Source: Effrenium voratum (taxonomy: Eukaryota > Sar > Dinophyceae > Suessiales > Symbiodiniaceae). From it: a stretch of 64,000 nt of DNA. Where the stretch lies: contig CAUJNA010003299.1 of NCBI GenBank assembly GCA_963377175.1, positions 536,602 through 600,601 on the forward strand, written 5' to 3'. Under the pieces are notes generated by a model. The model was given only the letters and a program-made list of their open reading frames with translations. It made no database searches and had not been told where the DNA came from. The translations under genes and the position numbers were made by a program. This document shows positions 3,001-57,640 of the stretch, piece after piece (the stretch's first letter is position 1; each line of letters starts with the position of its first letter).

Positions 3001-6000
3001 ATTGGCATCGCTGGGCCCATGGTCACATAGTCACAGGTGGACTGGGACGAACCAGTGCGGCTGAAGCCAAAAGCAAAGGAAGCGGAGCCGGTGTGGCCGA
3101 GAGACCTTGAGGGCAAAGAGGAGCCCAAATGCAAATAGTCCAAGGTGGGCACTGGAAGGCCGAACCTGCTGCAGCTCCACACTGAAACTGCCAGGCCCGT
3201 TCAGGCAAAGGACCTGGGCAGCAACATCGGGCCGAGCTTGGCCATGTCGAGGGTGGGCAAGGTGGAGCCCAGGCAAAGCATGCCACAAGGCGATGAGGTA
3301 GGCCCGACGCGGCCAGAAGATCGCATTGAGCAAGATAAGCCCATGTGCCCGTGGTCCAGCGGCAAAGGTGCCAAGTCCATGCGTGAAGCACTGTAGATGG
3401 AGAATGGGCTGCCTGCTCGGCCAAATGGTCGCATGGGCATGGTGAGCCCCAAGTGCAAGAAGTCGGGCACCGAAATGGATGACTCGAGATGTGTTCTGCT
3501 GAAGGTGGGGGAGGGCAAGCCCAAGTGCCCGACAGCACGCAGCAGTAGCATCGGCCCAAGGCTGGAGAGGTCAAAGGGCGGCATCAGCATTTCAGAGCGC
3601 GCGCATGACCGAGCCGACAAGGAGGCCTCCAAGTTCGCAGAGTCCGGCACCGGCAGCAACGAGCCCGGCCGGGTGGCGGCGGACACCAAGAGCGGCGAGC
3701 CCAGTCGCGTGTGGGACCTCGCAAGCAGGGAGCTGCCAGGCCGGAAGAGGTCCGGAGTCGGCGCCGCTGGGCCCAGGCGCGAGAAGCTTCGAGCAGACAC
3801 CACAGAGCCCAGGGCCACGAAGTCGGCCGCCGGGGGCGACGGTCCAGAGCGTGCCAGGCCGCAGGGCGAAGGCGCGAAGCCCAAGCACCCGGAGCTCCGC
3901 GAAGATGGCGGAGGGCCCAGGTTCTCGCAGTCCAAAGCCAGCAGCGGCGACCCAGCGCGCCCCACGCTGAAAGTGGGCGAGGCCGGGCCCAAGTGCGCCG
4001 TGCTCCTCAGGGGCGGAGCCGAGCCAAAGTGCGCAAAGTCCAGTGCCGACATGGCCGGGCCGACGTGCAAGAAGCTCCTGATGGGCGGCGGGGCTCCCAA
4101 CTGCATATGTTCAAGAACTGGCAGAGACGGGTTGAGTCGCGTCACCCCGCAGGCTGGGAAGGCAGCTTCCAGACGGCCAGGGCTGCGCAAAGGCAGCGTC
4201 GACTCCGGCTTTGCGAGGTCAAGTGCTAGTAGCAACAAGCCAGGCCTCACCGAACCACAGATTGAGCAGGACAGGCCAAAGCGCATCTTGCTCCGCGACA
4301 AAAGCGCTGGCTCGGAATGAGCAAAGTCAAGGACGAGCGCGGCACTTCCAATGCGGCCGAGGCTTTGCAACAATGCAACGGAGCCAGTTAGCAGCACATC
4401 CAGCAGCAACAAGGAGAACTCGAAGCGCGCAAGGCCTAAGACGGGCATTCCGGGCCCCGAGTGCGCACAGCCACGCAACGCCGTGGGCGAGCCTGGGTTG
4501 AGCAAGTCTGGGGTGGGCGCTGCAGGGCCGAATTGCGCAGGGCTCCGCAAGGGCAGCGACAAGTCGAGGTGCAGGTAGTCCACGGTGGGCGAAGGGACGT
4601 CAAAGCGCGCTGCGCTCATCACGGAGCACCCGGAGCCGAACCTTCCCACGCTGCGCGAGGAGGGCATGAAGCCCGTGAAGGTAGGGTCCGTGGCGGGCGG
4701 CAGAGAGCCTGGCTGCGTGCGGCTAAAGACTGGGGAGGAGCTGCCCAGTCGGGCGGAACTGCGGGGGGAGAGGCACAATCCCAAAAAGGAGACGTCAGAG
4801 GCAGGCGGCGTGGAACCCGAGCGGCTGCTGCCCCACGCAAAGGAGGGCGAACCACACTGCGCCGTAGATCTCAAAACCAGCATGGGCCCGGGATGCAGAA
4901 GGTCGAGGGTTGGCGCCATGAAGCCAGAGCGTGCGTGGCTGTGTACCAGAGGGCTTGACCCCAAGTGCGCCCGGTCCGGGGCTGGAAGTGAGGATTCAGG
5001 GCGCAGAGGAGCAAAGGCGGAGGAGGCCGAGGCTGCGTAGGCAGAGCTCCGGGGCAGCAGCGTAGGCCCAGATCGCGCAGAGCTGCGCGCGGGCAGCGAA
5101 ACGCCGGGATGCAGAGAATCCAGGGCCGGCGTGGCAGAGTCGAGCTGCGCGCAGCTCCGCGCAGGTGGGGTCAAACCGACTGACACAAGGTCTGAGGTTG
5201 GCATAAACAAGTCCAAGCACACAGGGCTCCGAGCAAACAGGGAAAGGTCAATGTAGACATGATCAAGCACAAGAAGAGTCGAGCCCAGCATGGTCTTGCC
5301 AAACACTAGGAACGAGACATCCAAACACGCAAGAGATCTGATAAACAGGAGGGATCCCAAATGCAGAAAGTCCAAGGTCAGCAAAAAGCTGCCCATGCAA
5401 GCCAAGCCGGAGATAGAAGCCGACGGCTCCATGCACGCGCAGCTGTGTAACGACATGGTGAGGCCTAGCTTCGCAGAGTCCAAGGCTGGCGGTGTGAAGC
5501 CAAACCGCGACATGCCGGAGGTGGGCGGCATCGGCCCGTATCGCGCGGAGCCTCGCACCGGCAAGGGTGGACCAGGGCGCAGGAGGTCCAGAGCCAGCAA
5601 AGCGAAACCTGAGCATGCAAAGGCTTGCAAGGAGGGCGGTGGGTCAGGCATCACGTGGTCCAAGGCCAGCGGAAACGCACCCAACCGCGAGACTCCTGCC
5701 GCAGGCATCAAAGGCCCGCAGCGCGCAAAGCTGTGCGCGAACAGCACCAGTCCGGGGTGCAAGGAGTCAAGGACCAGCAGCACAAAACCAAGCCGCACGC
5801 GGCTCCGGACAGGTGGCAATAGGCCCAGATTCGCGTGGTCCGGGGTTGGCGTGGGGAGGCCCAGCCTGGTCATGCCCACAACTGAGGAGGTGAGGCCCGG
5901 GCGTGCGAAGGATCGCAGAGGCAGCAACAAGCCAGTCTTCACCACGTCAAGCAGGGGCGTCGACAAGCCCAAACGTACACACGACCAAGTGGGCAGGGTA

Positions 6001-9000
6001 GGGCCAAGGTGGGCAAAGGAGCGTAAGGATGGAGTGGATCCAAGGTGCAAGGAGTCCGGTGCCAACAGAGACACCCCAAACCTTCCCAGGCTGAAAACAA
6101 GGAAGGGCAGTTCCGAGTGCGCAAATGCTCGCAGCAGCAGCGGGCTGCCGGAGTGGGCAGGGTCCGGCGCCGGCGCCGGAGCTCCTAAGCGCGACATGCC
6201 CACGCAGGACGGAGTGGGCCCCGTGCGTGCCGTGCTGCGCAGGGACGTGGTGGGGCCGGGCTTCAGAAAGTCCAGCGGCGGAAAGGGCGGCCCAGAGCGC
6301 GCCACGCCAAAAGCCGGCAAGGTGCTGCCCAAAGCGCCGGAGCTCCGCACGGAGAAGCAGAGGCCGGGGTTGGTGAAGTCCGAAGCTGGCGCCGGCGGCC
6401 CGGAGCGCGCGCACTTGAAGGCAGGCATCGAGCTGCCCAAAGTGCTGGAGGACCTCAGCAGCGGTGGGGAGCCGAGGAAGGCAAGGTCCAACACGAGAGT
6501 CGAGGGCCCCAACCTTGCCGGGCCTTCCAGTGGCATGACTGGGCCCGGTTGGCCAAGGGACCGCATGAGCAGCGGCGGGTCCAAATGCGCGAAGTCCAGC
6601 GTGGGGAAGGGGCTGCCCAGCTCCACCGCGCCAAAGGCTGGCACGAAGAGCCCCAGGCGAGCGAGGCTTTGGGTCGGCATCAAGGAGGCCAGCGCAGCGC
6701 AGTCGGAGGCAGATGGGGAGAGCCCAAACCAGGTCAAGCCGAAGAGAGGCGCAGAGGCTCCAGCACATCCAAGGCTCCTTGCAGGAGACGTGAGCCCCAT
6801 GTGGGAGCTGTCCAGAGGCAACATGAACAAGTCAAACCGAACTCTGCTAAAGGTAGAGAACGGCACACCCGAGCGCCCGAGGTCTTGCAGCAGCAAGCAC
6901 GGGCCGAAGTGGACGGAGTCAAAGGCAAGAAGCAAGGGTCCCATCCGCGTCGCAGAAAGAGCAGACGGAGGAGCACCACAACAAGCCAAACCGCGGACGG
7001 GCAACGATGGCCCAAGGTGCGAAAAGTCCAAGAGCAACGGCACAGACCCAGGCTGTGACATGGACCGCAGCAGCGGAGAGGGACCAAAAATCACCGTGTC
7101 TGAGGCGGGTGGGCACGGGCCAAATCGAGCTGCGCTGGATGCCGGCATTGTAGAGCCATACCTCGCAGGGCTTCGGAAGGGTACGGCTGGCCCGATGTGC
7201 TGGCTGTCTGCCACCGGCATGGGCGCACCAACTCTCACCTGCCCGGAGGCCGGCAACACAGAGCCCACGCGCGCATTGCTCCTGGGCGAGGAGGTGGGGC
7301 CCGTGCTCAGGAAGTCAGAGGTCGACGTCAAGGACTCAGACCTACTCAGCTTGAAGGCCGAAAGCGGTGCACCACATCATCCCGAGCTGTGCGCCAAAGG
7401 CAAAGAGTCCGGCTGCAAGTGGTCGGACGTTGGCGTCGAAAACCCGGACCTGGCCACACCGAAAATCGGCAGCGCTGGGTCCAGGCAAGCAGAGCTGCGG
7501 GCTGAAGAGGCCAGACCCGGCGTGGCGAAGTCCAAGGGCGGCAAAGGAGGGCCCAAGCGCGTCATGCCGTAGGCTGAGGGTGGCAGACCCAAACAGCTGG
7601 AGCCTTGGGATGACAAAACGGAGCCGGACTGGGCGTGGTCAAGCGCCGGCGGTAAGGACTCAAAGCAGCCCAGCCCGAACGTCGGCGCAGAGGGGCCGAT
7701 GTGGGCCGTGCTGCGTACAGGCATGGCAAAGCCACACTTCGCCATATCCAGGGGCGGCATGAAGAGGCCAAAGCGACCAAGGCCGAAGGGCAAGAAAGTG
7801 GAGCCAAGCCGAGCCATGCTGTGCAGAGGCAACATCAGCCCAAGGTGCGAAAATGCCAAAGGGGACATGGGAGCACCACATTGGACCATGCCAAAGGCGG
7901 ATGAAGCTGGGTCTGCACGGCCGAGGCTTCGCATGGGCATCATGCTGCCCAAATCGCTGAGATCCGGCACCGGCACCAACAGCTCGGAGCGTGCCAAGCC
8001 GAAGACGGACACTGAGCTGTCAGGGTTTCCGGGGCTCTTGGGAGACAAGCTCAAGTCCAAATGGGCAAAGTCCAGCACAGGCAGGGTCAAACCCAGGAGA
8101 ATCTTGCCGAAGATGGGGGTGGAGGAGCCAGGAGCCGCCTTGCTTCGAGTGGAGAAGGCCAGGCCAAAGTGTACAAAGTCGAAGAGGGGCGTGGATGGGC
8201 CGCACCTGCTGACACCCAAGATGGGCAGAGCTGGCCCGGGTCACCCCATAGCCCGCGGCAGCGACGGCGCGCCCGCAGTTACCAGGTCCAGGGCAGGCGA
8301 CGGCGCATCCGTGCGCGAGGCCCCGGAGACGGAGGGCGCCGAGCCCGGCTGCGAACCGCCCCGCATGGAGGGTGGGGAGTCCGTGTGGAGGAGGTCTGGG
8401 ATGAGTGCTGACGGGCCGGAGCGCGCTTGCCCGCAGAGCACCATGGCAAAGCCCGCACGGCCAAAGCTTTGGGGCGACGAAATAGGGCCCAAATGCAGGA
8501 AGTCCAAGGCCAAGAGCGAAAGGCCAAAGCAGCCAGTGCCGAAGGCGGGCAGAGCTACGCCGGCACGCGCACGGTCGCGAACTGGCAGAGCCAAGCCCAG
8601 ATGGGAAAGGTCCAGCAGTGGCGTGAGGAGGCCAAAGCGCGAGACGCCCAGTGCCAACAAGGACAAGGCGGGGCGAATGAAGCCACGTGCGGACAGGACG
8701 GAGCCCAAAGTTTCGCTGTCCAGAGCCAGCAGCAACAGACCGAAGCAAGCCAACCCAAAGGCCAAAACTGTAGAAGCAGCTCGCGCAAGGCTTTGCAGAG
8801 GCAGGACGGAACCTGTCGTTACAAGATCAAGTGCTGGCAGCATCAAGCCCAGGCATACCACTCCATAGGCCAGTGCCGCCAGGTCAATGCGAGAATGGCT
8901 CCGCGGAAACAGCGGCAGCCCGGTGTGGATAGAGTCCAAGATTAACGGCAGCAGGCCCGGCTGAGCACAGCCGTACACAGACAAAGGCGGCCCAAGACAA

Positions 9001-9995
9001 GCAAAGCCTTGCAAGGGCAAGAAGGACTCTGTGTTCACAGGGTCCAAGGTTGACAGGGTCAGCTCAGGCCAAGCGACACCATAGACAGAGACCGACGATC
9101 CAGGCCAAAGGGAGCTGTGCAAGGACGTGCTGAAGCCTACCTGCATGAAGTCTAAAATCGGAGGTAAAAAGCCCAAGCGTGTCATGCCGAAGGCAAACAT
9201 AACAGGGTCGAGCTGCACAGGTGTTTGGATGGACAACAAAGAGCCGGTATGCACAGAGTCAGGGGCAAAGAGAGGGAAGCCAAGACGTCCCATGCCATAC
9301 ATCAGCGGAGGAGGCCCGGGTTGTACCATGGACCTCAAGGGAATCAAAGAGCCCAAATGTATGAGGTCCAGCACGGGCAGCGACGAGTCCAGGCACGATA
9401 TGCCATACACCAACGGCAACACTTCGAATCGCGCCATGCCCCGAACAAACAACAGACTGTCCATGAGCACAAGATCAGGCGCCGACAGCGAAAACTCCAG
9501 CCGACTGATGCCATAGGTGGACAGCGCCAGACCTGGGCGCATGGAAGACCTCAAAGGCATGGCCAAACCAACGCAGGCGGGGTCCAACATGGGCAACAAA
9601 AGCCCCAACCGCACCACGCCATAGGCGGACGAGGCCAGGCCCAATCTGGCGAATCCACGAGGTGACACCAACAGCCCCAAGCTGGCCGGGTCCAAAAGCG
9701 GCAGTGAAAAGTCCAGGCGGCTGATGCCGAAAACCAACAAGGCCGGCCCAGTGCGGGTGAAGGTGTGAGTCGAGGGCGGAAGTCCAGTGTTTGCAAAATC
9801 CAGAATTGGCGCCGGAGCACCCGAGCACGCCAGACCATACGAGGGCACCGAAGCGCCGCAGCGGGCGAAAGTTTGCAACGACATGGCCAAACCCGCCGAC
9901 ACGAAATCCAAAGCCGAAGGCAAAACGTCCGGCCGGGAAATGCCATACATGGAAGGCGCCAAGCCAGTGCGCAAGAAGCCACGCAGGAGCAATGC
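1..9995 (-). CDS. Giant solenoid-repeat gene (gene 2), repeat exon after the 789-nt intron; continues past the left edge
   Basis: The minus frame (codon first base congruent to 2 mod 3) is open from 9,995 to position 1 except for three TGA codons at 3,201, 7,377 and 8,241. It encodes about 3,330 residues, nearly all in 36-residue units of three 12-mers: YGMSRLGSSLPV-like, then LDFVHLGSSLPL-like, then RSFARLGSSLPV-like. The array is still running at position 1, so the C-terminus is outside the window. The start is the acceptor AG at 9,997-9,996; joining GCA at 9,995 to CCG at 10,785 restores the module exactly (IGP then ALLLRGF). I checked positions 1-3,200 triplet by triplet and found no stop in this frame. 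No enzyme motif, signal peptide or membrane segment is apparent. A repetitive beta-rich structural or surface protein is an inference from the alternating small and hydrophobic residues. It could be a decaying copy because of the TGAs. Confidence 0.8.
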
Positions 9996-12900
9996 CTCGG
10001 CAAGGCACGGAGGGGCGGAAGTGGGAGGCCTGAGTTGTGTCATCCACCTTACCAGAAGAGCCCACAGCCCCAATAGATCTATAGCTTCTATGGGGTCACC
10101 AACTGTGTTTGGGGGGGGAAAGTATCTGCTTGCCCGGTCAGCAAAGGGTGCGACCCCCGACCCCATCGGCTTACAGCGCGACCTTTTTACACACTTTTTC
10201 ACCCATGTTGATGGGGTTCCTTCAAGGGGCTCAACGTCGATTGACATTGGGTACAGTTGGTCGCTGCGACACCAAGGAACCGGGTGTGTTGCGAACAAAC
10301 AACACGCGCAGTCAATATCAGGTGCTTGTCATTCAAGCGAGTTCTCAAGGAACAGCCATCTATCATATTTGTTTAGGCTGCTACCAAGCAGCACAAAACG
10401 TATAAGTTCAATCTGGCCCATATCCCTTTCAAGCTAACAAGATCGGGAATGAACATCACCGGCAAGCAACACAAGAGGGAGGTTGTTCTGTTCCGTCGTC
10501 CCTCGGCCAATCTGTTGAAGATTCCACAAGTGCAACCCAACACCCCTCTTGTTCCATGTGACTAGTAACCCAAGTGCTAAGCAGCCCACTTCAAAACGCA
10601 GAGATGGGTCACGCAGAACATACTTCTGAGCAGGCGAGTGATCAACTTCCAGAACAACAACCTTGAGCTGACCCCGAAATATCTGCCAATGTTAGACCGA
10701 AACTACAAGGATAAATCATAGATCCCCAACTGAAGGTGGTTTACAGCTGGGACGGCACCTCCCCAATTCCCAGTGCCAGGGCGCCGGTCCGATGTTCACA
10801 AGGTCCGGCACCGGCGAGAAGGGCCCCAGGCGGCTGGCGCCGTAGGCCAAGGGCGCCGAGCCCAGGCGCAGAGATCCCCGCGGAAGCGGCCCCGGCCCCA
10901 GGCTGGCGCGGTCCAAGAGCGGCAGAGGAGGCCCCAGACGCACCAGGCCGGAGGCCGAAGGAGAGAGCTCCGCGCGCAAGAAGGAGCGCGAGGAAGGGGA
11001 AGCCTCCGTGCAGGCCGAGTCCAAAAGAGAAGGAAACGGGCCCAGACGGCTGATGCCATAGGCCGACATGGAGAAGCCCAGGCAGGCGAAGCCGTGCAAA
11101 GAAGGTGCGAAGCCGAATTGGGCCGGGTCAGGAACTGGAGGCAGAGGTCCCAAGCGCGAGAGCCCGTAGGCCGAAGGCGCGGAACCCATGTGCAGGAAGG
11201 AGTGCAAGGGAGGAGAGCTGCCCAGGTTGGCAAAGTCAAGAGGAAACAAAGGCGAGTCCAGACGCAGCAAGCCGTATGCAGACAACAAGAAGCCACAGCA
11301 TGCAAGGGACCGTAAGGACAGGGCTGGCCCGATTGTCACGAGGTCCAAGACCAGAGGCGAGAACTCTGACTTCGAGAACCCGGAGGTGGGCAAAGAGGGG
11401 CCGAGGCGCACAGAGCTCTTCAGCGGCGTGGGTGGGCCAAACTGCGCAAAGTCCGGCAAAAGCAGCAAAGATCCCAGGCGCACCATGCCAAATGCCGGCA
11501 AGGCAGGCCCCAACTGCGCGGGCGACCGCGGCAAAGGCGGCGGGCCTGCGTGCATGGGGTCCAGGGTTGGCAGGGTGCTGTCCAGCCGGGTAGAGCCGTA
11601 AATCAGGAGCGCCAGGCCGAAACACACGGAGCTGTGGAGCGGTAAAGGTGCCCCGATGTTCGCGAAGTCGACCACAGGCGGCAGGGGGCCAGGGGTCACC
11701 ATGCCGTAAGCCGGCAGCAAAGAGCCTAGCCTGCAGAAGGATTGCAGCAATACGGAGCTCTCTGGATGCGCAGAGTCCAGCAAAAGCGGCAAAGAGCCGG
11801 TGCATGTCATGCCATAAGGAGGTGGAGAAGGCCCCAAACGCGCAAACGACCTGATTGGCATCGGCGCCTCCAAATGCACAGGGTCAAGCACGAACAACAA
11901 GAAGCCCAGACGGTTAAGTCCGTACACCAGCAAGGCAAGCCCAAAGCACACGTGACTTCGAGCCAGGGGCGGAAAGCCGAAGTTGATGAAGTCCAAGGCC
12001 AACAGCATGGGGCCAGGCCTCGTCATGCCAAAGGCCAAAGGCATGAATCCGGGCCTTGCGGGCGCCCGCAGAGATGCGGCCAAGCCCGGCTGCACGTGGT
12101 CCGAGGTGGGCGGCGGCAGGTCCGAGCGGCTGGCGCCATAGGCGAAAAGCGGAGGCCCCAGTCGCATGAAGGACCTGGTCAACGACGAGGAGTCGAGGCA
12201 GGCAGAGTCCGAGGCGGGCGGCGGACTTCCCAGGCGTGCAAGGCCGAAGGCAGCCGTGGGAGAGCCCGGCTGCAGGAAGGTGCGTGACAACGTGGAAAGC
12301 CCGAAGCAGCTCGTGTCAAGGACGGGCAAGGAGGGGCCGGGACAGGTGCAGCCAAAGGCCGGCAAAGGGGAGTCAGGGCGCATGAAGCCTTGGGGAGGCA
12401 AGGCGCTGCCAGAGTGCGTGAGGTCCAAAATCAGCAGCAACAGTTCAAGGCGAACCAGGCCATACACAGGCGATGGCAAGTCCATTTGCAAGGAGCTCTT
12501 GAGTGACGGCGATGGCCCCAGCTGAGCAGAGTCAAGAAGCGGCGGCAAGGGGCCTGGCCGGCACAGCCCGAAGGCTGGCATTGGCGGGCCAGGCCTCACG
12601 TGGCTCTGCAGGAACATCAGAAAGCCCAGCCTGACAAAGTCAAGGGCTGAAGGTGAGGGCTCAAGCCTAGACACGCCATAAGCTGGCGAAAGAGAGTCAG
12701 GTCGGCAAGGCCCATGCAGTGGCATGATCGGCTCCAGCCGCACAAGGTCCGGCGCCAACAAGGGTGGGCCCAGGCTGGAAATGCCAAAAGCGGGCAGCAG
12801 CAGCTCCGAACGGATGTGGCTCCTCAAGGACAAGGTGGGCCCGGAATGGGCGGCATCCAACGCCAGAGGCAAGGGCCCCGAGCGCACCAGGCCATAGGCC

Positions 12901-21900: not shown

Positions 21901-24900
21901 GGCGCCGACAGCCCAAGGTGCACAAGGTCAAGAACCAACAGCAAAGGGCCCAAACGCGTCCTGTCGTAGGCCAACAGCAAGGCGCCCGTGCGAACAAAGC
22001 TCAGAGTCAATGAAGACGGGCCCATGTTGACAAAATCCAACGCCAGCAAGGTGGACCCCGGGCGCGTGACACCGTAAGCGGACAACAGCAAGTCCAAGTG
22101 CAGGAAGCTATGCAGAGGCAAAGTGGGTTCTGCGTGCATACGGTCAAGCAAAGGCAAACTGGGCCCCGGGCAAGTCACGCCGTAGGCCGACAGAGAAGCC
22201 TCCGTGCGGACGGGGCTGCACGTTGACGGTATGAATCCAAGGTTGGCGAAGTCCAAGGGCGACGGGCAGAGGCCTGGGCGCACAATGCCGTAGACGGAGA
22301 GCGCGGGCCCGAAACACGAGAAGCTGTGGAGAGGAGGTGAGGACCCTAAATGCACGTAGTCCACCGCAGGCGTTGCGAGCCCCGAACGGCACATGCCATA
22401 TGCCAACAAAGAGGAGCCGGGGCGCATGTGGGACCGCGGTGGCAACAGCAGGCCTGGGTTCAAGTGGTCGGGCGTCGAGGGCGGGGAGCCCAGACAAGTG
22501 ACGCCGTAAGTGGGCATCAAAAGCCCTGAGCGGAGCATGCTGTGCAGGGGCAGCACCGAGCCAAGATGCATGAAGTCCAACACAGGCAAGGCGAAGCCTG
22601 GACAAGACATGCCATAGGCCAGCAAGGTGAGGCCCAAACAGCTAAAAGCTCGCAGAGGTGGGGTGGGGCCAGGATGAATGAAGTCCAGGATCAGCGTAGA
22701 AGCTCCCGGCCAAGCCAGCCCAAAGGCCGGCAGGGGCAGCTCAATGCGCATGGAGCCCTGCAGAGGCGACAAGGAGTCAGACTGCACGGAGTCCAAGACG
22801 GGCAAAGGCAAGTCCAAATGCGCAACCCCATAGGCCAGCGGCGAAAACCCCAGGCGCGCCGTGCTCCTTAGCAAGGAGCTGAAGCCCATGTGCACAAAGT
22901 CCAAGGTGGAAAGCCCCCAGCCCAGGCGGGCCATGCCATACACCGACAACACGCTGCCAAAGCGAACGGAGCTGCGGACCGGCGCCAAAGGCCCTGAGTT
23001 CACAGGGTCCAGCACTGGAGGCGAAGGTCCGGGCCGCGCCGTACCGTAGGGGGACATGGTGAAGCCTGGGCGCCAGTGGGAGCGCAAGGGCGGCGAAAGG
23101 CCCAGGTGCAGAAGGTCCAAAACCGGGAGCGACGAGCCCGGACGGCATAGGCCGTACGCTGGAGGGGTGAAGCCCAGATGAATGGAGGACCTCATGGGCG
23201 AGGGAAACCCCAAGTGCACAAGGTCCAGTGCAGGCATGGAGGAGCCTGGCCGCATGATGCCGTACACCGAAGGGCTAGACCCTGACCATGCGTAAGACCG
23301 CACCAGCAGCGAGCTCGCCCCAACAAAGCAGTCCTTAACCGCCGGGTTCGGGCCAAGCCGGGTGATGCCAAAAACCAACAGCGAAGAGCCCAGGCGAATA
23401 TGGCTCCGCAGCGGCAAGAACGAGTCCGAGCTGAGGTGGTCAAGCGCTGACAAGCTGCTGCCGAGATGAACCACGCCGTAGGCCAGCAAAAAGAAGTCCA
23501 TTCGCGCAAGGGCTCGGGTGGAAGGCATGCTCCCCAGATTCGCGTGGTCCAAAGCCGGCAAAAACAGGCCCAAAGCCGTAAGCCCAAAAGCGGACAGCCC
23601 CGGGCCCAAATGCATGAAGGACTGCAAAGGTGGCGAGAACCCGATTTGCGTGGAGTCCAAAGGGGGCAGCGAAGAGCCTAGGCACGTCATGCCGGAAACG
23701 GGCGAAGACAGACCCGCACGAACAGGGCTTTGGATAAACAAGATCGGTCCAAGGAAGATGTGGTCCAGCATCGAAAGGGTCAAACCCAGGCGCATCACGC
23801 CGTAGGTCGAAATGGAGCTGCCCATGCGAGCAAAGCTTTGCAGTGACAGCAGCAGCCCAAGCTGCACCAGGTCAGGGGCCGGCAACAGAAAGCCGGGCCG
23901 CGTCATGCCGAAGGCGGGCGGTGTAAGCCCCAATCGGCAGGAGCCCTGCAACGGCAACGGGCTCCCCAGTCGCACGGAGTCCGCGGCTGGCGGCAGCGGG
24001 TCCAGGCGCATCATGCCGTAAGCCAGCGGCGTCGGCCCGATGCGGCAGCTTGCCCTAGGCAACGAAGGCGAGCCAGGCGACACAAGGTCCAGCGCCGAAG
24101 GCGAAGGCCCTGGCAGGGACATCCCGTACATGGACAGCACCAAGCCCAAGCGCGCAAAGCCCCGCAAGGAGGCCGACAGCCCGAAGTGGCAGTAGTCCAG
24201 AGTGGAGGGCGCCGAGCCCAGGCGCGTCAGGCCATAGATGGGCGCCGTGAAGCCGAAGCGCCCGAAGCTGCGCGGAGACGAAGAGGCGCCGATGTGGACG
24301 AGGTCCGGGACGGGCAGAGGCTTTTCGGAGCGCACCGAGTGGAAGAGTGCCGGAGGCGCGCCGGTCCGCGCGAGGTTGTGCGTGGGCAGGGACGGGCCCA
24401 AGTTCACGGAGTCCAAGGCCGGTGGCAAAGAACCCAGGAGCACATGGCCGTAAACCGACAAGGGGGAGTCCAAGCAGGCGAATCCTTGCAACAACGAGAC
24501 GCTGTCGAAATGCATAAGGTCCAAAGTTAACGGAAAGAAGTCCAAACGAGTCACCCCATAAACGAGCAAAGGCGGGTCAGGCCTGCAGAGGCTTTGCACA
24601 AGCATGGCGGATCCGCCGGTCATAAAGTCCGGTGTCGGCAAGCTGGGGTCCGGGCAAGTCAGGCCAAAAACCAACAGTAGCGGCCCTGAGCAGAAGAGGC
24701 TTTGCAGTGAAGGCATGGGCCCGGTATGGATGAGGTCAAAGGCTGAAGGCGGGGAGCCCAAGCAGGACATGCCGTAGGCAGAGGTGCACGAGCCCGTGCA
24801 CACAAGGCTGCGCGTTGGCGAGGGGCTGCCAGGGCGAATGAAATCCAACGCTGGAATGGAGGAGCCTGGCCGCGCGCAGCCGGAGGGCGGCGAGGTAAAG

Positions 24901-27900
24901 CCGGGGCGCATGAGGCCACGCAACAGCGACAAGGGGCCGATCGCCATGTGGTCCAACGCCAAGGGAGGAGGGCCCAACCGCACCAGGCCGTAGGCGGACG
25001 GGGAAGGGCCCGAGCGCGCCATGCTGCGTGCTGAGGGGCTCGAGCCCGAGCTCACATGGTCCGGAACAAATAGAAACAAACCCGGTCTCAGGCAGCCATA
25101 GGGCGACGTGGGCGCGCCCAGCTGTGCGTGGCTGCGGGGAGGAAGCATTGAGCCCAAAGACAAGTGGTCTGGCACTGGCAGCAGAAGGCCTGGGACAGTC
25201 ATGCCGTAGGCGGGCAAAGCTGAGCCGATGTGCATGTGGCTTTGAAGTGGCATGGGCAACCCCGAGTGCAGGAAATCCGATGCCGGCAACAGCAGGCCCA
25301 GCCAAGTCATTCCCCACAACGAGGGAGATGGACCAAGTTGAACAAGGCTACGTGCAAGCAAGGTGGAGTCTGGGTGGACAAGGTCGAGTGCAAAGGCAGG
25401 AAAGCCTGGCCTTGACATGCCGTAGGCCAACAAGAAGAGGCCCAGTCAAATGAGGCCGTGCAACAGCAGCACCAAGCCAAGACTGATGGGATCAGGCGCT
25501 GAGCATGGCGAGCCCAGTCGCGACATGCCCCAAATGGACATCAAGGCTCCGGGCTGCATGGATCCCCTGGGCAACAGCACTGGGCCCGAGTGGACGAAGT
25601 CCGAGATCGGCGGCGGCGGGCCGGGACAGGTGATGCCAAAGGCAGGTGTCGTGGAGCCGATGTGCATGAGGCTCCTGGGGGGCAGGGTGAGGCCAGCGCT
25701 GAGGAACTCCAAGATTGGCAGGCTGGGCTCCGGCTGAGTCATGCCGTAGATGGAGAGTGACAAACCCAGGCACGAAGGGCCCTGCAAAGGCAACAAGGCG
25801 CCTGGCTGCAAAAGGTCCAGGGCAGGCGTGGGAGGGCCCGGCCGCGTCAAGCCAAAGACTGGAGGTGTGAAACCTGGGTGCAAATAGCTGCGCGGAAACG
25901 TGGCCGGGCCGGTGCGGATGAAGTCCAAAGCCAGCAGCAAAGGACCCGTAGTGGCCGTGCCGTAGAGCGGTAGCATGGGCCCTGGCCAGATGAAGGACCG
26001 CAGCGGCAAGAAAGAGCCAAGCGAGATCAGGTCCGGAACCGGCAGTAACAAGCCCAGGCGCGTCATGCCAGACGCCAACAGGGGCAATTCGAGGCGTGCG
26101 TAGCCCTGCGGAGGCAAAAGCGGGTCCATGTGCACAAGGTCCAGCGCAAGCAAGAGGGAGCCAAGCCGAGAAATGCCATAGGCCGACAGAGTCGGGCCCA
26201 GCTGTGTGTAGCCGCGCAGGGGCGACAAGGCGCCTGGGTGAAGGAAGTCCAGCACCGGCAGCAGTGGGCCTGTGCGAGACATGCCATAGATCGACAAGGG
26301 CGAGCCCAGTCGCGCGAGGCCCCGAGGCGACAGAGGAGAGCCAAAGAGCACAAAGTCCAAGGTCAGCGCTGGAGCTCCTGGACAGCTCAAGCCATAGGCC
26401 GGCATCATGAAGCCAGGCCGCGCGTGGGATCGCAAGGGCGGCGGCGGGCCGGAGTGCCCGAAGTCCAAGGCCGAAAGGGATGAGCCCAAGCAAGTCATGC
26501 CGTACACCAGCAGAGAAAAGCCAAGTTGCAAATGATACCGCGGCGGCATCACAGGCCCCAAGTGGACAGAGTCAAGCACTGGCGAGGTAAAGCCAAGCCG
26601 CGCCATGCCGTAGGCCGAGCAGGCCGGGCCCAAACGCATCCACGCCCTCGAGGGCAAAATGGGCCCCAGCTGCACAAGGTCGAGCACTGGCAGTGGGGAT
26701 GCCAGCTTGGCAATGCCGTAAGCGGACAAGGCCAAACCCAGCTGAGAGGAGCTCTGCATTGGCGAGGGGGCGCCGACGTGACAAGGGTCCAGCGGCAGAG
26801 GCGACGAGTCCAGTCGCACCAAGCCATAGGCCAACGAGACCAGGCCTGGACGTGCAAGCCCGCGCGAGGGCAGAAAGCTGCCTGTCACAGTGTAGTCTGG
26901 CACTGATAAAGACAACTCAGGGCGGCTGATGCCCCAGGCAGACATCAGCAACTCCAAGCACATTAGACCCTGCAGTGGCAAGGAAGGGCCCAGCTGGACA
27001 AGGTCAGGGATAGGCAAGGGCAGCTCTGGGCGGGTGAGGCCATAGACCAACAGCCCCGGTCCAGGGTGTGCATGGCCGCGCGTGGACATGGAGGAGCCCA
27101 TGATGGCGTGGTCAGGAGCCAACGGGGGCGAGTCCGTGCAAACCATGCCATACACAAATGCCGAGGAGCCTGGTCAAGAGAGGCTGCGCAAAGGCAAGGG
27201 CAGGCCCATGTGCACAGAATCCAGGGCAAACAGCAGCAGGCCGGGCCGGGTCATGCCGTACACCAGCATGGAGGAACCAAGCCTGCCAAAGCCCCTCAGC
27301 GGGAGAGAGCTTTGCATGCTGCCATAGTCGAAGGCCAACAGCATCCTCCCGGTGCGCAAGAAGCTGCCAGCAGGCGTCGGAGGGCCCATACACACAGAGT
27401 CCAAGGTAGACAAGAGCAGCCCCAAGCAGCCCAGACCATAAGCAGAGAGCGGCAGCTCAGGTCATGCAAGGCCCTGCAAAGAAAGCAACGGCTCAAGCTG
27501 CACAGAGTCCAAGATCGACAGAAACAAGCCCGAGCAACTCACGCCGTAGGCCGACGGCGAAAATCCCAGGCGTGCAAAGCTCCGAACTGAGTACGAGCTC
27601 AGGAACTCGGCATAGCCTCTAGTCCTGAAGCCCTCAGTGACCACGCACATGCCGTAGATGAACATGGACGGCCCGAGCTGTGCGAAGCCCTGCAACAAAG
27701 AGGCCGAGCCCACAGTCACAAGGTCCAGCGCCGGAGGCGAGGAGCCCAAGCATGCCAGGCCGTACACAGAAGGCATCAGACCCAAGCGCGACATGCTGCG
27801 TGCGGATGGGGTACTTCCCAAGGCGAAGTGGTCCAGGGCCAACAGCGGAACCTCCGGGCGGGCCATGCCGTAGGCCGGAAAGGAGAGCCCCAAGTGGATG

Positions 27901-30900
27901 GAGCTGTGCAATGGCGGAGGGCTGCCCAAATGGATGTGATCCAGCACCAACAGCATGCTTCCCAGCCGCGACATGCCATAGACCGGCATCGCCAAACCGG
28001 TCCGCTGAAGACCTCGGATGGGCAAAGGGCTGCCAGAGTGCATGAAATCCAAGGGCGAAGTCGGTGCACCCAGGTTGCAGAGGCCATAGACCGAGGACGC
28101 GCTCCCAAATCACGTGGGGCTGTGCAGGGGCGAAAATGGCCCAAAGCCCACGTGGTCCAGCACGGGCGGGAACGCGCCGAGCTTGGTCACGCCGAAGGCG
28201 GATGAGGTGAAGCCCGTCCTGCAGTGCGCCTGCAAAGGCAGGGAAAGGCCCAGGTGCAAGGAGTCCAGTGCCAGCAGCGAGGGCCCCAAGCGCGTGAGGC
28301 CGTAGGCCAAAGGCGCCGAGCCCAGGCGCGCCGTGCTGCGGGGCGAAGAGGTGGGGCCGAAGGCGATAAAGTCCGAGGCGGGCGGCGGAAGGCCTAAGCG
28401 CACCATGCCGGAGGCTGAAGGCGCCGAGCCAAGGCGGCCAGGTGCGCGGGGCAGTGGCGTGGGGCCCAAATGCACAAGGTCGAGGGTCGGCAACAGAGGG
28501 CCCGTACGGAGCATGCCATAGGCCGAGAGACTCAAACCCATTTGCATGTAAGACCTTGGAAACAGTACTGGGCCCAGCTGCACGTGGTCTAAGGCTGAAG
28601 GAGACGAGCCGGGCTGGGTCACACCGTAGGGGGGCAACAAGGAGCCCGAACAAACGGAGCCTTGCACTGGCAAGGATGAGCCAAGATGCGCAAGGTCCAA
28701 GACAGGCATGGAGCTATCAGGTCGGCTCATACCGTAAGCTGATGGCATCAGCCCAGCATGCATGAGGCCACGTGGAGGCATGGTCAACCCAATGTTCACA
28801 GAGTCCAGTGTGGGAAAGCTCAAGCCAAGGCGTCCACAACCGTAGGCTGAAATCGAGGCCCCGGTGTGGATGTGGCTTCTCAGCAGCGGCAAGGAGTCTA
28901 GGTGAGCAAAGTCCAACAGGGGCGGTGAGGGCCCAAGTCGTGCCATGCCATAGGCGGAGGAGGCGAGGCCGGGACGGCCAGGTGCTTGCGACGACGCTGG
29001 GGACTCAAAGCTGGAGTGGTCCAGCACCGAAGCCGCCGAGCCCGAACGATTCATGCCGTAGGGTGACAAGGCCGAGCCAGGCCGAGAGGACGCCCGCAAA
29101 AGCAGCGGGGAGCCGAGGTGCACGGAGTCCAGCGCCAAAGGTGACGAGCCCGTGCGATGCATGCCGTAGATAGACGAGGTGAATCCCAAGCAAACGAAGG
29201 CTCGTGCCGAAAGCGAAGCGCCCGAAGAAACAAGGTCCGGCGCGAGCGGTGGCGAGCCCAAGTGCGTCACCCCGTACGCCAACGTCGCGGCGCCGGGTCG
29301 CATAGAAGTCCGCAGTGGTGTCGGCGGGCCCGGCTGCACCAAGTCCAGCGCAAACAGCAAAGGACCTGTACAGGTCATGCCGTACAGGGGGATGGAGGCA
29401 CCTGGCCGAGCCAAGGCACGAGGAAGCAGCAAGAAGCCCGTGGTGGCGAAATCTGAGGCGAACAATAAGAAGCCAAGGCGCGTCAGCCCGGAAACAGCCA
29501 AGGAGGCTCCAGGGCGTGCGAGCGTGCGCGGCACCAAAGAGGGGCCGATCTGGATGTGGTCTAGCGCCAGCATGGGCGAGCCTAAGCGCATGAGCCCAAA
29601 GACCAACGAGCTCAAGCCGGGATGAGCGGAGCCGCGCAGAGAAACAGCGGAGCCCAGGTGAATAAGGTCCAGGGCAAACAACGGCACGTCCGAACGGCTC
29701 AGCCCATAAGCCGTCGTGGCAAGCCCGAGTTGAGCCGGGCTGTGCAGAGGAGGCAAGGACCCGAGGAGCACAAAGTCAGGCACTAACAGCACGAAACCCG
29801 TGCGGCTAATGCCATAGGCCGACATCATGGGGCCCGTGCGCGCGTAGCTGTGTGAAAACATGAAGCTGTCAAAGCACACGTGGTCCAAGGCCAGCGTGGA
29901 GGAGCCGAGCATGCCAACTCCGTAGAGCGAAGTCGTGGGCCCCAGGCGCGCCGAGCTGCGTAAAGGCATGGGCGGTCCCAGATTGATGAGGTCCAACACA
30001 AGGAGAGTGGGCCCTGGCCGTGACAAGCCAAAGACCAAAGGCATCGGACCGGTTCAGGCGAGGGTTTGCGAAGACATGGGGCTGCCAGCTAAGATGGGAT
30101 CAAGGACCAGCGAAGTCAAGTCCAAACGGCTCAGTCCAAAGACAAGGAGTGGGGAGCCAAGCCACACAAAACTCTTCGGCAGCATTGTGGACCCCATGTG
30201 AGTGAAATCAAGGGGCGATAACAGCAAGCCAAGCCTGGTCATGCCATAAGCCGAGAGCGGAAACCCAAGATGGAGGCATGCTCGGGATGGCACAACGCTG
30301 CCAGGATGGACATAGTCTGGGACTGGGATTGGTGAGGCTGGGCGGGTCATGCCATAGGCCAAGAGCGCCAAGCCTGGGCAAAGGGAGCTATGCAACGAAG
30401 CTGAGAATCCGGCGAGCCCAAAGTCCAACATCGGCATCGTGGGGCCGGGGCGCGCCGCGCCGTAGAGAGCCGCCGACAAGCCGATGCGCGCGAAAGCGCG
30501 GGGGGAAGAGGAGGAGCCGAGGTGGGCGGAGTCCAAGGGCGAAAGCGAAGATCCAAGGCGCACCATGCCATAGATGGAGGCGGAAGATTCTGGACACCCA
30601 CAGGCCCGCAGCAACGAGGAGCTTCCCATGTGCGCAGAGTCCGGCGCCAAAAGTGGGGAGCCCGAGCTGGACATGCCATAGGCGAGCAACGCCAAGTCCG
30701 TGCGCACGTGGCTCCTGGCCGACATGGAAGAAGCAGAACTGGTGAGGTCAAGGGCCAACGGAGGAGGACCCGGGCGAGACATGCCGTAGGCGAACATCAT
30801 GAGCCCCAAGCGCATTGAGGCTCTCAAAGGCATGGAAGAACCCACGCGCACAGAGTCCAGTGCCAGCAGTAGAGCGCCAGTGCGGGACATACCACTGGCC

Positions 30901-32540
30901 AAAGGGGCTGAGCCCAGGCGAACGAAGCCTTGCGTGGGCACGGGAAAGCCCAGAGACACATAATCCAATACCAACAAGAAGGGCCCAAGCTGAACCAAGC
31001 CATAGACCAAAGGCAATACTCCAAGGCAAGCGAAATTCCTAAGGGACGGCAGTGAGCCTGGCTGAACAGAATCCAGAGCAAGCGGGCTTGGCCCCAGGCA
31101 AGCAACGCCATAAGTGGACATGATCGGGCCAGCGCAAGTGTGGGCTCTCGCGGAAGGCGAGGAGCCGGGGTGAACAAGGTCAGGTGCCGACGGAATCGAC
31201 CCTAGACGAGACAGGCCGTAGACGGGCGGGCACGACCCAAGCCTTGCAAAGCCCCGAAGAGACAAAGGAGCACCTGGGGAGAAAAGGTCCGTGGCTGGCA
31301 GGGAACTTTCCAGGCGTGTGATACCATAGACCGACAGAGATGGCCCCAACCGCGCGAAGCTCGTGACGGGCAGGCCGCTTCCTGGCTCCACGTAGTCGTA
31401 GGTGGGCATGGCAAGCCCCGAGCGCGCCAGTCCAAATGAGGGCATCAAAGGCCCCGGACGAATGTAAGTCCGCGACAATGTCGGAGAGCCCAAGGAGACG
31501 AAGTCCAAGGCAGGCGTCGAAGCACCGAGCTGCGCCAGGCCGTAGGTGGGAAGCAAAGGGCCAAGTCACGAGGGGCCATGGAGCAAAAGCGAAAGGCCAG
31601 TGTGCAGGCAATCCAAAGTCGCCAGCAGCTCGTCCGAACGGCTCATGCCATAAGCGGGCAGCAAGCTTCCTGGGCGCACGGGGCTGCGCGCAAAGGGCGG
31701 AGGACCAGGCATGAACAAGTCCAGGGTGGGCGGAGGGGCTCCGAGCCAAGTCGTCCCATAGATGGACGTCAACAAGCCACAACACACAGGCCCTTGCAGA
31801 GACAAAAGGGATCCGGCCTGCACCAAGTCCAGAGCCGAAAGCGAAGACCCTGACCTGGACATGCCAGAGACTACAGGAGAAGCTCCCAGTCAGGCAGGGC
31901 CATGTAGCAGCATGGTGAGGCCAAGGTGGATGAAGTCCAGCGTAAACATGGGAAAGCCAGGGCGCGACAGGCCATAGGCCAAGAGTGCGGGTCCCAGGCG
32001 GCCGTGAGTCCTGAGGGACAGAGAGGCGCCCAAGTGGATGAAATCCAGCACGGGAGACGGAAGTCCAGGGCGGACGCTGCCATATGCGGACATGATCAAG
32101 CCTGATCATGCGGGACTACGAGGCAACAGAACGCTGCCAGGGTGGGCGTGGTCGGGCACCAACAAAGGAGCACCTGGCCGAGACATGCCATAGGGCGACA
32201 TGGCGGGCCCAAAGCGCACGTGGCCGCGAGGCGAAGTGGAGAAGCCAAGGTGCACAAGGTCCAAGGCAGACAGCGGGGCTTCGGGGCGCGCCATGCCGTA
32301 AGCCGATGGCACGCTCCCAGGCCGCACAAAGCTACGAGGTGGCGCAGCCGGCCCACAATTCGCGAGCTCCGGCACAGACGTCGCAGGACCCGGGCGGCTC
32401 ATGCCGTAGGCAGACATCGCGGCGCCGGGGCGGATAGGCGTCCGCGGCACCGACGAGGACCCAAAGTCCACAAAGTCTGGGGTTGCCGGAGATGCGTCCG
32501 GGCGGGTGATGCCGTAGATCGACACAACGGAACCTGATCA
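3201..32540 (-). other. Thirteen position-locked in-frame TGA codons
   Basis: Plus-strand TCA (minus TGA) starts at 3201, 7377, 8241, 21774, 25446, 27174, 27462, 28110, 30054, 31566, 31890, 32106 and 32538. Each lies in the RS-type module at residue 5, where the consensus is Arg: for example RSFA-stop-TG, HGLI-stop-LG, RSLS-stop-PG, HSPT-stop-FG, RSPA-stop-SG. Intervals are whole 108-nt units in ten of twelve cases (one after removal of the intron) and whole 36-nt modules in the other two (3201-7377 and 27174-27462). The same codon position in other units is CGN, or TGC/TGT, TGG, CAC, CAA or CAG, all one CpG transition from CGN; AGG also occurs. Confidence 0.93.
9996..10784 (-). other. GC-AG intron interrupting the giant repeat array (789 nt)
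   Basis: The repeat pattern breaks at GPAP near 10,785 and resumes at 9,995. On the minus strand the segment begins GCGCCC and ends GCCGAG, with G following, which fits dinoflagellate-type introns. Two things confirm the borders. The 36-residue unit is whole after joining. The distance between the flanking TGA sites (8,241 and 21,774) minus 789 nt is 12,744 nt, exactly 118 units of 108 nt. Inside are stops and ordinary non-repetitive sequence; open frames across it are read-through of the intron. Confidence 0.85.
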
Positions 32541-32611
32541 AGAAAGGCTACGCGCAGGAGGCAACAAGCCGAAGTGAGAGAAATCCAGGACCGGCAGCAT
32601 GGAGCCCAAAC
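10785..32611 (-). CDS. Giant solenoid-repeat gene (gene 2), 21.8-kb exon with about 200 tandem 36-residue units
   Basis: One minus-strand frame runs from 32,611 to 10,785 with ten in-frame TGA codons and no other stop or frameshift; the longest uninterrupted piece is 3,681 codons (10,716-21,761, whose 3' end runs into the intron). Units are 36 residues built of three 12-residue modules sharing a Leu-Gly-(Ser/Pro)-(Ser/Pro)-Leu core. Individual units are strongly diverged, so this is not a recent amplification, yet unit length is almost invariant. One 12-residue module is missing near 27.3-27.4 kb. The exon starts at G32,611: acceptor AG at 32,613-32,612 is followed by GT, which completes an Arg codon split with the upstream 82-nt exon and gives QA-R-LGSMLPVLDF in register. 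The first TGA comes about 24 codons into the exon. Function is unknown; a fibrous beta-solenoid is an inference. A pseudogene is possible, but the retained frame argues against long neutral decay. Confidence 0.85.
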
Positions 32612-47521: not shown

Positions 47522-47835
47522 GTCTGCGCGTGTGTCTGTGTGTTTTGCGTGGTTTGTGTGTTTTGTGTGTTTTGTGTGTTGTGTGTGTTTTGTGTGTTTT
47601 GTGTGTTTTGTGTGTTTTGTGTGTTTTGTGTGTTTTGTGTGTTTTGTGTGTTTTTATTTTTTGTGTGTTTTGTGTGTTTTGTGTGGTTTGTGTGTTTTGC
47701 GTGTTTTGCGGGTTTTGCGTGTTTTGTGTGTTTTGTGTGTTTTGTGTGTTTTGTGTGTTTTGCGTGTTGTGTGTGTGTGTGTTTTGCGTGTTTTATGTGT
47801 GTTTGCAGGTGTGTTTTGTGTTGTGTGTGTGTGCC
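47522..47835. repeat. TGTGTTTTG 9-bp array
   Basis: About 30 imperfect copies of TGTGTTTTG on the plus strand, with TGCG and TGTGG variants and a T-rich interruption near 47,655. Open frames rich in Val-Cys-Phe come from this simple repeat only. Confidence 0.9.
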
Positions 47836-50084: not shown

Positions 50085-50381
50085 TGGGGGGGTTTGGGGG
50101 TTCGGAGATTGGGGGTTGGGGGGGGGGGGGGTTTGGGGTTTGGAGGTTTGGGGGTTTGGGGTTTGGGGGTTTGGGGGTTTGGGGGTTTGGGGGTTTGGGG
50201 GTTTGGGGGTTTGGGGGTTTGGGGGTTTGGGGGTTTGGGGGGGGGTTTGGGGGTTTGGGGGTTTGGGGGTTTGGGGGTTTTGGGGGTTTGGGGGTTTGGG
50301 GGTTTGGGGGTTTGGGGGTTTGGGGGTTTGGGGGTTTGGGGGTTTGGGGGTTTGGGGGTTTGGGGGTTTGGGGGTTTGGGG
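50085..50381. repeat. GGGGGTTTG 9-bp array
   Basis: About 30 copies of TTTGGGGGT on the plus strand, with a few length variants (extra G near 50,110-50,120 and 50,235-50,243, extra T near 50,280). The G runs are spaced so that quadruplex formation is likely on the plus strand. Long Gly-Leu-Val-Trp open frames are artefacts of the repeat. Confidence 0.95.
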
Positions 50382-57554: not shown

Positions 57555-57640
57555 TTGGGTCGGTTGGGTCGGTTGGGTCGGTTGGGTCGGTTGGGTCGGT
57601 TGGGTCGGTTGGGTCGGTTGGGTCGGTAGGTTGGTTGGGT
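57555..57640. repeat. CGGTTGGGT 9-bp array
   Basis: Nine near-perfect copies on the plus strand, ending in a degenerate GGTAGGTTGGTTGGG. It lies about 70 bp upstream of the 57.4-kb exon; on the transcribed sense strand it is ACCCAACCG, so it could act as a pyrimidine/A-rich tract ahead of the acceptor. Confidence 0.93.

What the first reader, a model, noticed from the sequence alone, without database searches (positions are those of the whole stretch)
3201..32540. Thirteen in-frame TGA codons, all at one residue of a 36-residue repeat
Seen in the sequence: in a frame of about 10,600 codons there is no TAA, no TAG and no frameshift, yet TGA occurs 13 times, always at the fifth residue (consensus Arg) of the RS-type module. 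Each unit has three Arg positions and many codons one step from a stop, so 13 of 13 at one site is far from random. The base after the TGA is never G (it is A, C or T). Inference: the TGA may be read through or recoded, or corrected by U-to-C editing (TGA to CGA), or premature ends are tolerated only there. The simple alternative is CpG decay of CGA codons, which are enriched at this site in the units I sampled.
Basis: partly seen in the sequence, partly recalled or inferred. Interest (0 to 1): 0.92.

Follow-up and report, generated by a model that had tools for sequence, protein, structure and literature searches.

The report
Stop codons tolerated at one position
Giant repeat genes of a dinoflagellate alga carry dozens of the stop codon TGA, nearly all at one position of the repeat, yet the code after them stays intact, which suggests that the cell reads past these stops there.

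Summary
The genome is that of a peridinin dinoflagellate. On the - strand lies an array of 12-residue modules (R, Y, D); all 13 TGAs are the last codon of R modules (R12). The other in-frame stops lie in an inferred GC-AG intron. Four arrays (3,376 modules, about 122 kb) show no frameshift and 48 stops: 45 TGA and 2 TAG at R12, 1 TGA at sister site Y12. CGA decay supplies the TGAs but not the site: TGA:CGA is 45:75 at R12 and 1:49 at Y12 (P = 2.6e-7), though Cys and Trp occur at both. TGA at R12 is as frequent as other TGN codons predict; TAA/TAG there look depleted (P = 0.01). Selection against other stops persists after 18 upstream stops, though some residues loosen. Of 42 database relatives, 30 end just before R12. 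Pseudogene decay fits poorly. Best reading: UGA at R12 is passed as a sense codon, by recoding or, less likely, RNA editing. There were no RNA or protein data; separate expression of the pieces is not excluded.

The parts
10785..32609 (-). First block of the repeat array in this window: R-Y-D modules of 12 residues, 10 of the 13 TGAs
   Evidence: Module segmentation; translation; block end
9996..10784 (-). Inferred GC-AG intron, phase 0, between residues 3 and 4 of an R module; holds the only other in-frame stops (TGA, TAA, TAG, TGA)
   Evidence: 789 nt; joined flanks read PDLVN IGPALLLRGFLR TGLA; sequence
1..9995 (-). Second block, runs out of the window to C3117:535983; a third block lies at C3117:535141-520970
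32538..32540 (-). in-frame TGA at R12, 24th codon of the recognised array
32106..32108 (-). in-frame TGA at R12
31890..31892 (-). in-frame TGA at R12
31566..31568 (-). in-frame TGA at R12
30054..30056 (-). in-frame TGA at R12
28110..28112 (-). in-frame TGA at R12
27462..27464 (-). in-frame TGA at R12
27174..27176 (-). in-frame TGA at R12
25446..25448 (-). in-frame TGA at R12
21774..21776 (-). in-frame TGA at R12
8241..8243 (-). in-frame TGA at R12
7377..7379 (-). in-frame TGA at R12
3201..3203 (-). in-frame TGA at R12

Best explanation
The arrays are live protein-coding giant repeat genes of a dinoflagellate, and UGA at residue 12 of the R module is passed as if it were a sense codon. Shown from sequence: strict frame keeping, selection against stops at the other sites, TGA at R12 as frequent as neutral change predicts, and continued selection against other stops after many such TGAs. 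Inferred: translation really continues through them, with high efficiency (after 18 stops, about 0.88 or more per site if a tenth of full dose must remain), most likely because the ribosome or its factors decode UGA there (near-cognate Trp, Cys and Arg are all found at R12). CpG decay of CGA codons supplies the TGAs. What tells R12 from Y12 is not the neighbouring bases; a nascent-peptide effect of the R module, a somewhat stronger fold downstream of R12, or a lesser cost of an occasional stop after a complete R module are the candidates left.
For: Seven array blocks, 3,376 modules, no frameshift inside a block, 48 stops = 45 TGA and 2 TAG at R12, 1 TGA at Y12. The other five frames of the bodies hold 499-899 stops each (106 modules). 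All stops but R12 TGA: 195.8 expected from per-position base frequencies, 3 seen. R12 TGA 43 seen, 38.7 expected. R12 45 TGA:75 CGA against Y12 1:49, P = 2.6e-7, also when only units with residue 11 Ser, Thr or Ala are compared (P = 9e-5). TAA/TAG at R12 2 against 95 CAA/CAG, TAC/TAT 11 against 85 CAC/CAT, P = 0.01. From each stop to the next Met: 1,516 codons, 8.75 stops expected, 1 seen; D9 is Asp in 23 of 23 and Y9 Gly in 20 of 23 units lying between a stop and the next Met. Last fifth of array E, with 18 stops upstream: 15.7 other stops expected, 0 seen. The most alike 396-nt units are 60% identical (ungapped), so the TGAs are separate events in old sequence. 30 of 42 database relatives end just before R12; three pairs of relatives at 81, 82 and 93% identity share the same R12 end.
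Against: No RNA, ribosome or peptide data. No base near the stop marks R12-TGA, and TGA units do not have a stronger downstream fold than other R12 units (P = 0.34), so the determinant is unknown. No single standard residue for UGA explains the pattern: Cys, Trp and Arg are found at Y12 too, and Gln or His at R8, where 123 CGA and no TGA occur. The TAA/TAG depletion is modest. The independence expectation overstates stop numbers because residue choice couples codon positions. Toward the 3' end some residues loosen: D9 Asp falls to 0.90 in W and 0.79 in C265, Y9 Gly to 0.68 in W, 0.53 in E and 0.43 in C265, which a falling dose of translation would also give. Array W ends exactly with an R12 TGA, where translation may really stop. 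UGA is not a general sense codon here: 95 of 97 PCP matches and 125 of 135 kinase matches hold no in-frame stop.
Confidence: 0.5

Rival explanations
1. RNA editing: the DNA carries TGA but the mRNA is changed, either A-to-I of the third base (UGA to UGG, Trp) or U-to-C of the first (UGA to CGA, Arg), at a place set by the module.
For: Nuclear editing is reported in Symbiodinium microadriaticum (PMC5357065, passages) and named as a possible corrector of premature stops in the Polarella genome paper (PMC7245778, passage). A third-base A-to-I change would save UGA but not UAA, in line.
Against: U-to-C should save TAA/TAG as well, which look depleted. In the table passage seen, loss of a stop codon by editing is 0 and 1 sites in the two columns. 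No strong structure at R12.
Confidence: 0.2
2. R12 stops are true ends. The array is expressed in pieces (many internal trans-splice or start sites), and a product may end after a complete R module but nowhere else.
For: 30 of 42 relatives end there; conserved ends in three pairs of relatives; array W ends with an R12 TGA.
Against: Sequence between a stop and the next Met is about as constrained as the rest; in array E a TGA and a TAG lie one unit apart with no Met between them; TAA/TAG at R12 should be as welcome as TGA and seem not to be (P = 0.01); no base difference downstream of stops. Gene predictors end ORFs at stops anyway, so the relatives' ends do not tell termination from readthrough.
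Confidence: 0.2
3. Ordinary pseudogene decay by loss of methylated CpG in CGA codons.
For: TGA:CGA at R12 matches TGC/TGT/TGG to CGC/CGT/CGG (P = 0.16). Some residues loosen toward the 3' ends.
Against: No frameshift in about 122 kb although in-frame indels occur; Y12 CGA codons do not decay to TGA although Y12 CGC/CGT/CGG do become TGC/TGT/TGG; no other stops downstream.
Confidence: 0.05
4. Selenocysteine: UGA is read as Sec through a SECIS element.
For: Would be UGA-specific; a residue outside the standard 20 could be accepted at R12 and not at Y12 (reasoning).
Against: No SECIS or other Rfam match at E up to 1 in the four 10-kb loci searched; these hold only about 3.0, 6.8, 1.1 and 1.0 kb beyond the ends of W, E, B365 and C265, Rfam may miss protist SECIS, and further 3' exons are unknown. 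Cys is about equally frequent at R12 and Y12.
Confidence: 0.03

Closest known systems
Contingent UGA (stop or Trp) in Amoebophrya sp. ex Karlodinium veneficum (PMC6394959, abstract and passages)
   Same: Alveolate relative; UGA inside frames; internal UGA biased to the 5' part (here in arrays W and C265, P = 0.006 and 0.034, not in B365, P = 0.28, or E, P = 0.99)
   Different: There it is found across many genes and with UAA/UAG; here at one site of one repeat family, while PCP and kinase matches mostly follow the standard code
Context-dependent termination in ciliates such as Condylostoma (PMC4967479, search listing only; details recalled)
   Same: A stop codon that is sense inside a frame
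Programmed stop-codon readthrough and selenoprotein recoding (recalled)
   Same: UGA-specific passage
   Different: Known cases use a local or 3'UTR signal (recalled); none was found here; array E has 20 TGA and 2 TAG sites
Dinoflagellate nuclear RNA editing (PMC5357065, passages)
   Same: Could restore a codon
   Different: The passages seen report no clusters of repaired stops

Membership tests
Genome-wide reassigned or contingent genetic code (Amoebophrya type) | UGA found at conserved sense positions across genes | tested here: not met
   2 of 97 PCP matches and 10 of 135 kinase matches (my count) hold an in-frame stop; Y8 Trp is TGG 35, TGA 0. Two families only.
Programmed stop-codon readthrough | Conserved coding signal after the stop | tested here: met
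Programmed stop-codon readthrough | Stimulating context near the stop | tested here: inconclusive
   No base from -60 to +75 stands out in 135 tests (lowest P 0.0046). Mean fold of the 60 nt downstream is -17.3 at R12, -14.9 at Y12, -16.4 at D12; TGA and other R12 units do not differ (P = 0.34)
Programmed stop-codon readthrough | Readthrough product | not testable with these tools
   No RNA or peptide data
Selenoproteins | SECIS in the 3' region | tested here: inconclusive
   No Rfam match in the 40 kb searched; 3' ends incomplete
RNA editing | Base differs between DNA and RNA | not testable with these tools
   No reads
Decayed pseudogene | Frameshifts and stops at random sites | tested here: not met
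Peridinin dinoflagellate genome | Peridinin-chlorophyll protein genes | tested here: met
   PF02429: 97 matches here, none in the 14 control genomes

The most novel reading that the evidence does not exclude
Module-phase decoding: in a family of giant dinoflagellate repeat proteins the meaning of UGA depends on where in the repeat it stands, sense at the end of the R module and stop elsewhere, set by the nascent repeat peptide or by a longer-range feature of the mRNA rather than by neighbouring bases, efficient enough to pass about 20 UGAs in one message, and old in dinoflagellates.
Probability: 0.3. Interest if true: 0.95.

Novelty: new variant of a known kind. Interest (0 to 1): 0.85.

Why it matters
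It is a natural experiment with an internal control: the same codon, in the same genes, is free at one repeat position and purged at the sister position 12 codons later, with 1,210 and 1,003 modules to compare. If UGA is decoded there, it would be a new way to set the meaning of a stop codon, in a group said to use the standard code with few exceptions (PMC11453091, passage). If it is edited, it would be a dense nuclear case of stop repair. Either way, database models of these proteins may be cut at R12 (30 of 42 relatives end there).

Tried and rejected
Local context of the TGA: 135 positions compared, none convincing. RNA fold: pairing at the codon is alike at R12 and Y12; the 60 nt downstream fold somewhat more strongly at R12 (-17.3) than at Y12 (-14.9) or D12 (-16.4), but TGA units do not differ from other R12 units there (P = 0.34) and fold less over 153 nt (-47.0 against -51.0, P = 0.001). 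A single residue for UGA: none of the standard 20 fits R8, Y8, R12 and Y12 together (reasoning). Recent unit duplication carrying TGAs: none seen in an ungapped comparison. Re-initiation at a Met: disfavoured. Leaky stops with falling dose: selection against other stops does not fall, but D9 Asp and Y9 Gly loosen toward the 3' end in W and C265, and Y9 Gly in E, so it is weakened rather than excluded. Rfam and tRNA scans: nothing (Rfam on four loci and the window; tRNA on L039-L050 only). Pfam on two stretches and PDB on one: no family for the repeat. A first homolog search with one 360-residue piece found nothing. The AlphaFold model is useless (mean pLDDT 33.5), so no fold search was run. 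A paper search for RLGSSLS with dinoflagellate found 0 papers. In searches (listed 1 of 1, 20 of 23, 20 of 223, 20 of 42, 12 of 24, 8 of 8, 12 of 19, 3 of 3) no title or abstract start that I saw describes this repeat or these stops; five papers were opened for passages only (PMC4967479 was not opened), so four in all.

Limits: rows were dropped before counts. One search kept modules within array bodies chosen by eye (3,106); one search used a rule (runs of 10 or more modules, joined where the gap is at most 60 nt and a multiple of three) and kept 3,376. By that rule a frameshift would show as a split run; the only splits are at two introns in W and one insert in B365 that I did not resolve (both sides in one frame). 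18 gaps of one module length are unrecognised modules and could hide a compensated shift; 12 other in-frame indels occur. P values use the first set, those the second. Modules were typed by a scoring matrix trained on these same arrays, with stops scored as zero. Per array the R12/Y12 contrast is significant in W (0.013) and E (0.0001), not in B365 (0.18) or C265 (0.5). Both homolog searches scored only the 8,000 candidates sharing most words and only a limited length range. Of the 42 relatives, three groups are close kin (P0010/P0020/P0036, P0011/P0015, P0027/P0031/P0039); two carry organism names (P0012 Symbiodinium microadriaticum, P0007 Heterocapsa arctica) and neither ends at R12. Five end before Y12, one of them (P0016) weakly typed. 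None shares a 12-residue word with the four arrays, but that they come from other species is inference.
Full report
What is there. The window is C3117:536602-600601 of a 1.16-Gb genome in 3,699 contigs. A search for the peridinin-chlorophyll protein family gave 97 matches here and none in 14 control genomes, so it is a peridinin dinoflagellate. On the - strand, from 32609 to the left edge, runs an array of three 12-residue modules: R (consensus LGSSLPLRSFAR), Y (LGSSLPAYGLTR) and D (LGSSLPALDFVH). No Pfam family or solved structure matched the stretches tested. Third codon positions carry the least information in all three modules, as expected of coding sequence in this frame.

The observation. 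All 13 TGAs of the array in the window are the last codon of the R module, R12. The other in-frame stops (TGA 10716, TAA 10692, TAG 10434, TGA 10329) lie in a 789-nt stretch that begins with GC and ends with AG, whose removal restores a perfect module. A second GC-AG stretch, at about C3117:535.98-535.14 kb, also restores the frame (read by eye from the sequence). An insert in array B365 was not resolved.

More arrays. A search of the same genome with one stretch showed three more arrays: C3117 about 364.6-385.8 kb (B365), C3117 264.0-279.1 kb (C265) and C3628 211.8-253.1 kb (E). Its list is a lower bound. The window's own array (W) ends at C3117:520970. Together seven blocks hold 3,376 modules (1,210 R, 1,003 Y, 1,163 D). 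A frameshift would have split a block; the only splits are the three inserts. There are 48 stops: 45 TGA and 2 TAG at R12 and one TGA at Y12. The other five frames of the same arrays hold 499 to 899 stops.

Is it more than decay? CGA turns to TGA by the common C-to-T change. At R12 the ratio TGA:CGA (45:75) is like that of the other TGN to CGN codons (243:504). At Y12, where Cys and Trp are about as frequent as at R12, there are 49 CGA and a single TGA (P = 2.6e-7). The contrast has the same direction with each preceding base and holds when residue 11 is limited to Ser, Thr or Ala. So TGA is purged at Y12, as in a live gene, and is free at R12. TAA and TAG at R12 seem purged: 2 against 95 CAA/CAG, while TAC/TAT are 11 against 85 CAC/CAT (P = 0.01); at D12 0 against 115, with 25 against 358 (P = 0.002). 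Apart from R12 TGA, 195.8 stops are expected from base frequencies per position and 3 are seen. That expectation is too high in absolute terms, since the residues themselves are selected, but the comparisons within one codon are free of this flaw.

Old sequence, separate events. In an ungapped comparison the most alike pair of 396-nt units in the four arrays is 60% identical. There is no trace of recent unit copying. Each TGA is its own event, and a frame kept without a shift through such divergence means long selection (inference).

What happens after a stop. Between each stop and the next Met there are 1,516 codons with 8.75 expected stops and one seen, an R12 TAG one unit after a TGA in array E. 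Y9 is Gly in 20 of 23 and D9 Asp in 23 of 23 units that lie between a stop and the next Met. By fifths of each array, selection against other stops does not weaken: in the last fifth of E, after 18 stops, 15.7 are expected and none seen, with R8 kept in 99% and D9 in 96%. Against this, some residues do loosen toward the 3' end: D9 to 0.90 in W and 0.79 in C265, Y9 Gly to 0.68, 0.53 and 0.43 in the fourth fifths of W, E and C265, while B365 shows no such trend. TGAs are more frequent in the 5' part of W (P = 0.006) and C265 (P = 0.034), not significantly in B365 or E; a simple cost of truncation would predict the reverse.

Beyond these arrays. Two profile searches gave 22 and 20 relatives. Of all 42, 30 end at the residue before R12, 5 before Y12, and 7 elsewhere. 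None shares a 12-residue word with the arrays here. P0027 and P0031 (81% identical, 406 residues, no gap), P0011 and P0015 (82%), and P0010 and P0020 (93%) end at the same R12, so such stops seem to last. The DNA of these was not available, so the kind of stop and whether the array continues are not known. Several relatives come from contigs of the same length, and two EukProt models (s2095_g16, s2095_g18) bear one scaffold number, which suggests arrays cut into pieces by gene prediction (inference). Only two relatives carry organism names, Symbiodinium microadriaticum and Heterocapsa arctica; that the rest are from other dinoflagellates is inference.

Mechanism. Plain decay is disfavoured. 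What remains is passage through UGA (by decoding or editing) or separate expression of pieces that may end only after a complete R module. Passage is favoured by the constraint before the next Met, by the apparent preference for TGA over TAA/TAG, and by continued selection against other stops after 18 stops. No base near the stop sets R12-TGA apart; the RNA downstream of R12 folds somewhat more strongly than that of Y12, but not more so in TGA units. No standard residue for UGA fits all sites: Cys, Trp and Arg are found at Y12, Gln and His at R8. This leaves the nascent peptide, a longer RNA feature, a module-specific edit, or a mixed model in which UGA is passed with high yield and the few products that end at R12 do little harm while those ending elsewhere do. 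I rate passage by decoding at 0.5, editing 0.2, separate products 0.2.

Against what is known. A review states that dinoflagellates use the standard code, with exceptions such as Amoebophrya (PMC11453091, passage). In Amoebophrya UGA is contingently Trp or stop, with internal UGA biased to the 5' end (PMC6394959, abstract and passages). Nuclear editing occurs in S. microadriaticum (PMC5357065, passages), and the Polarella genome paper names correction of premature stops by editing as a possibility (PMC7245778, passage). None of the passages seen describes stops confined to one position of a repeat.

Noticed in passing
window 43678-45980, + strand: 27-bp tandem array (TRF rows of 8.3 and 72.7 copies) inside a 564-residue open frame with a whole-protein match to the collagen repeat (PF01391, E 6e-19, but no single stretch passes on its own, so it may be low complexity); a 100-N assembly gap (43901-44000) sits in it.
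   Followed up: partly
window 47537-47830, 50088-50381, 57555-57640: Short G/T-rich tandem repeats with units TGTGTGTTT, GGGGGTTT and TTGGGTCGG.
   Followed up: no
window 1-32609 (array W): In the repeat, residues 3 to 6 of each module vary mainly among Ser, Leu, Pro and Phe, that is largely C/T changes at first and second codon bases, while the first base of codon 2 (G) and codon D9 are almost invariant. The cause is not known.
   Followed up: partly
C3117:520970-521005 (locus L050): The last module of array W ends exactly with an R12 TGA before non-repeat sequence, so this one may be a true terminator.
   Followed up: no
G000:C3530, C336, C355, C188, C1204, C639: Tandem runs of peridinin-chlorophyll protein matches, many with the same score.
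   Followed up: no
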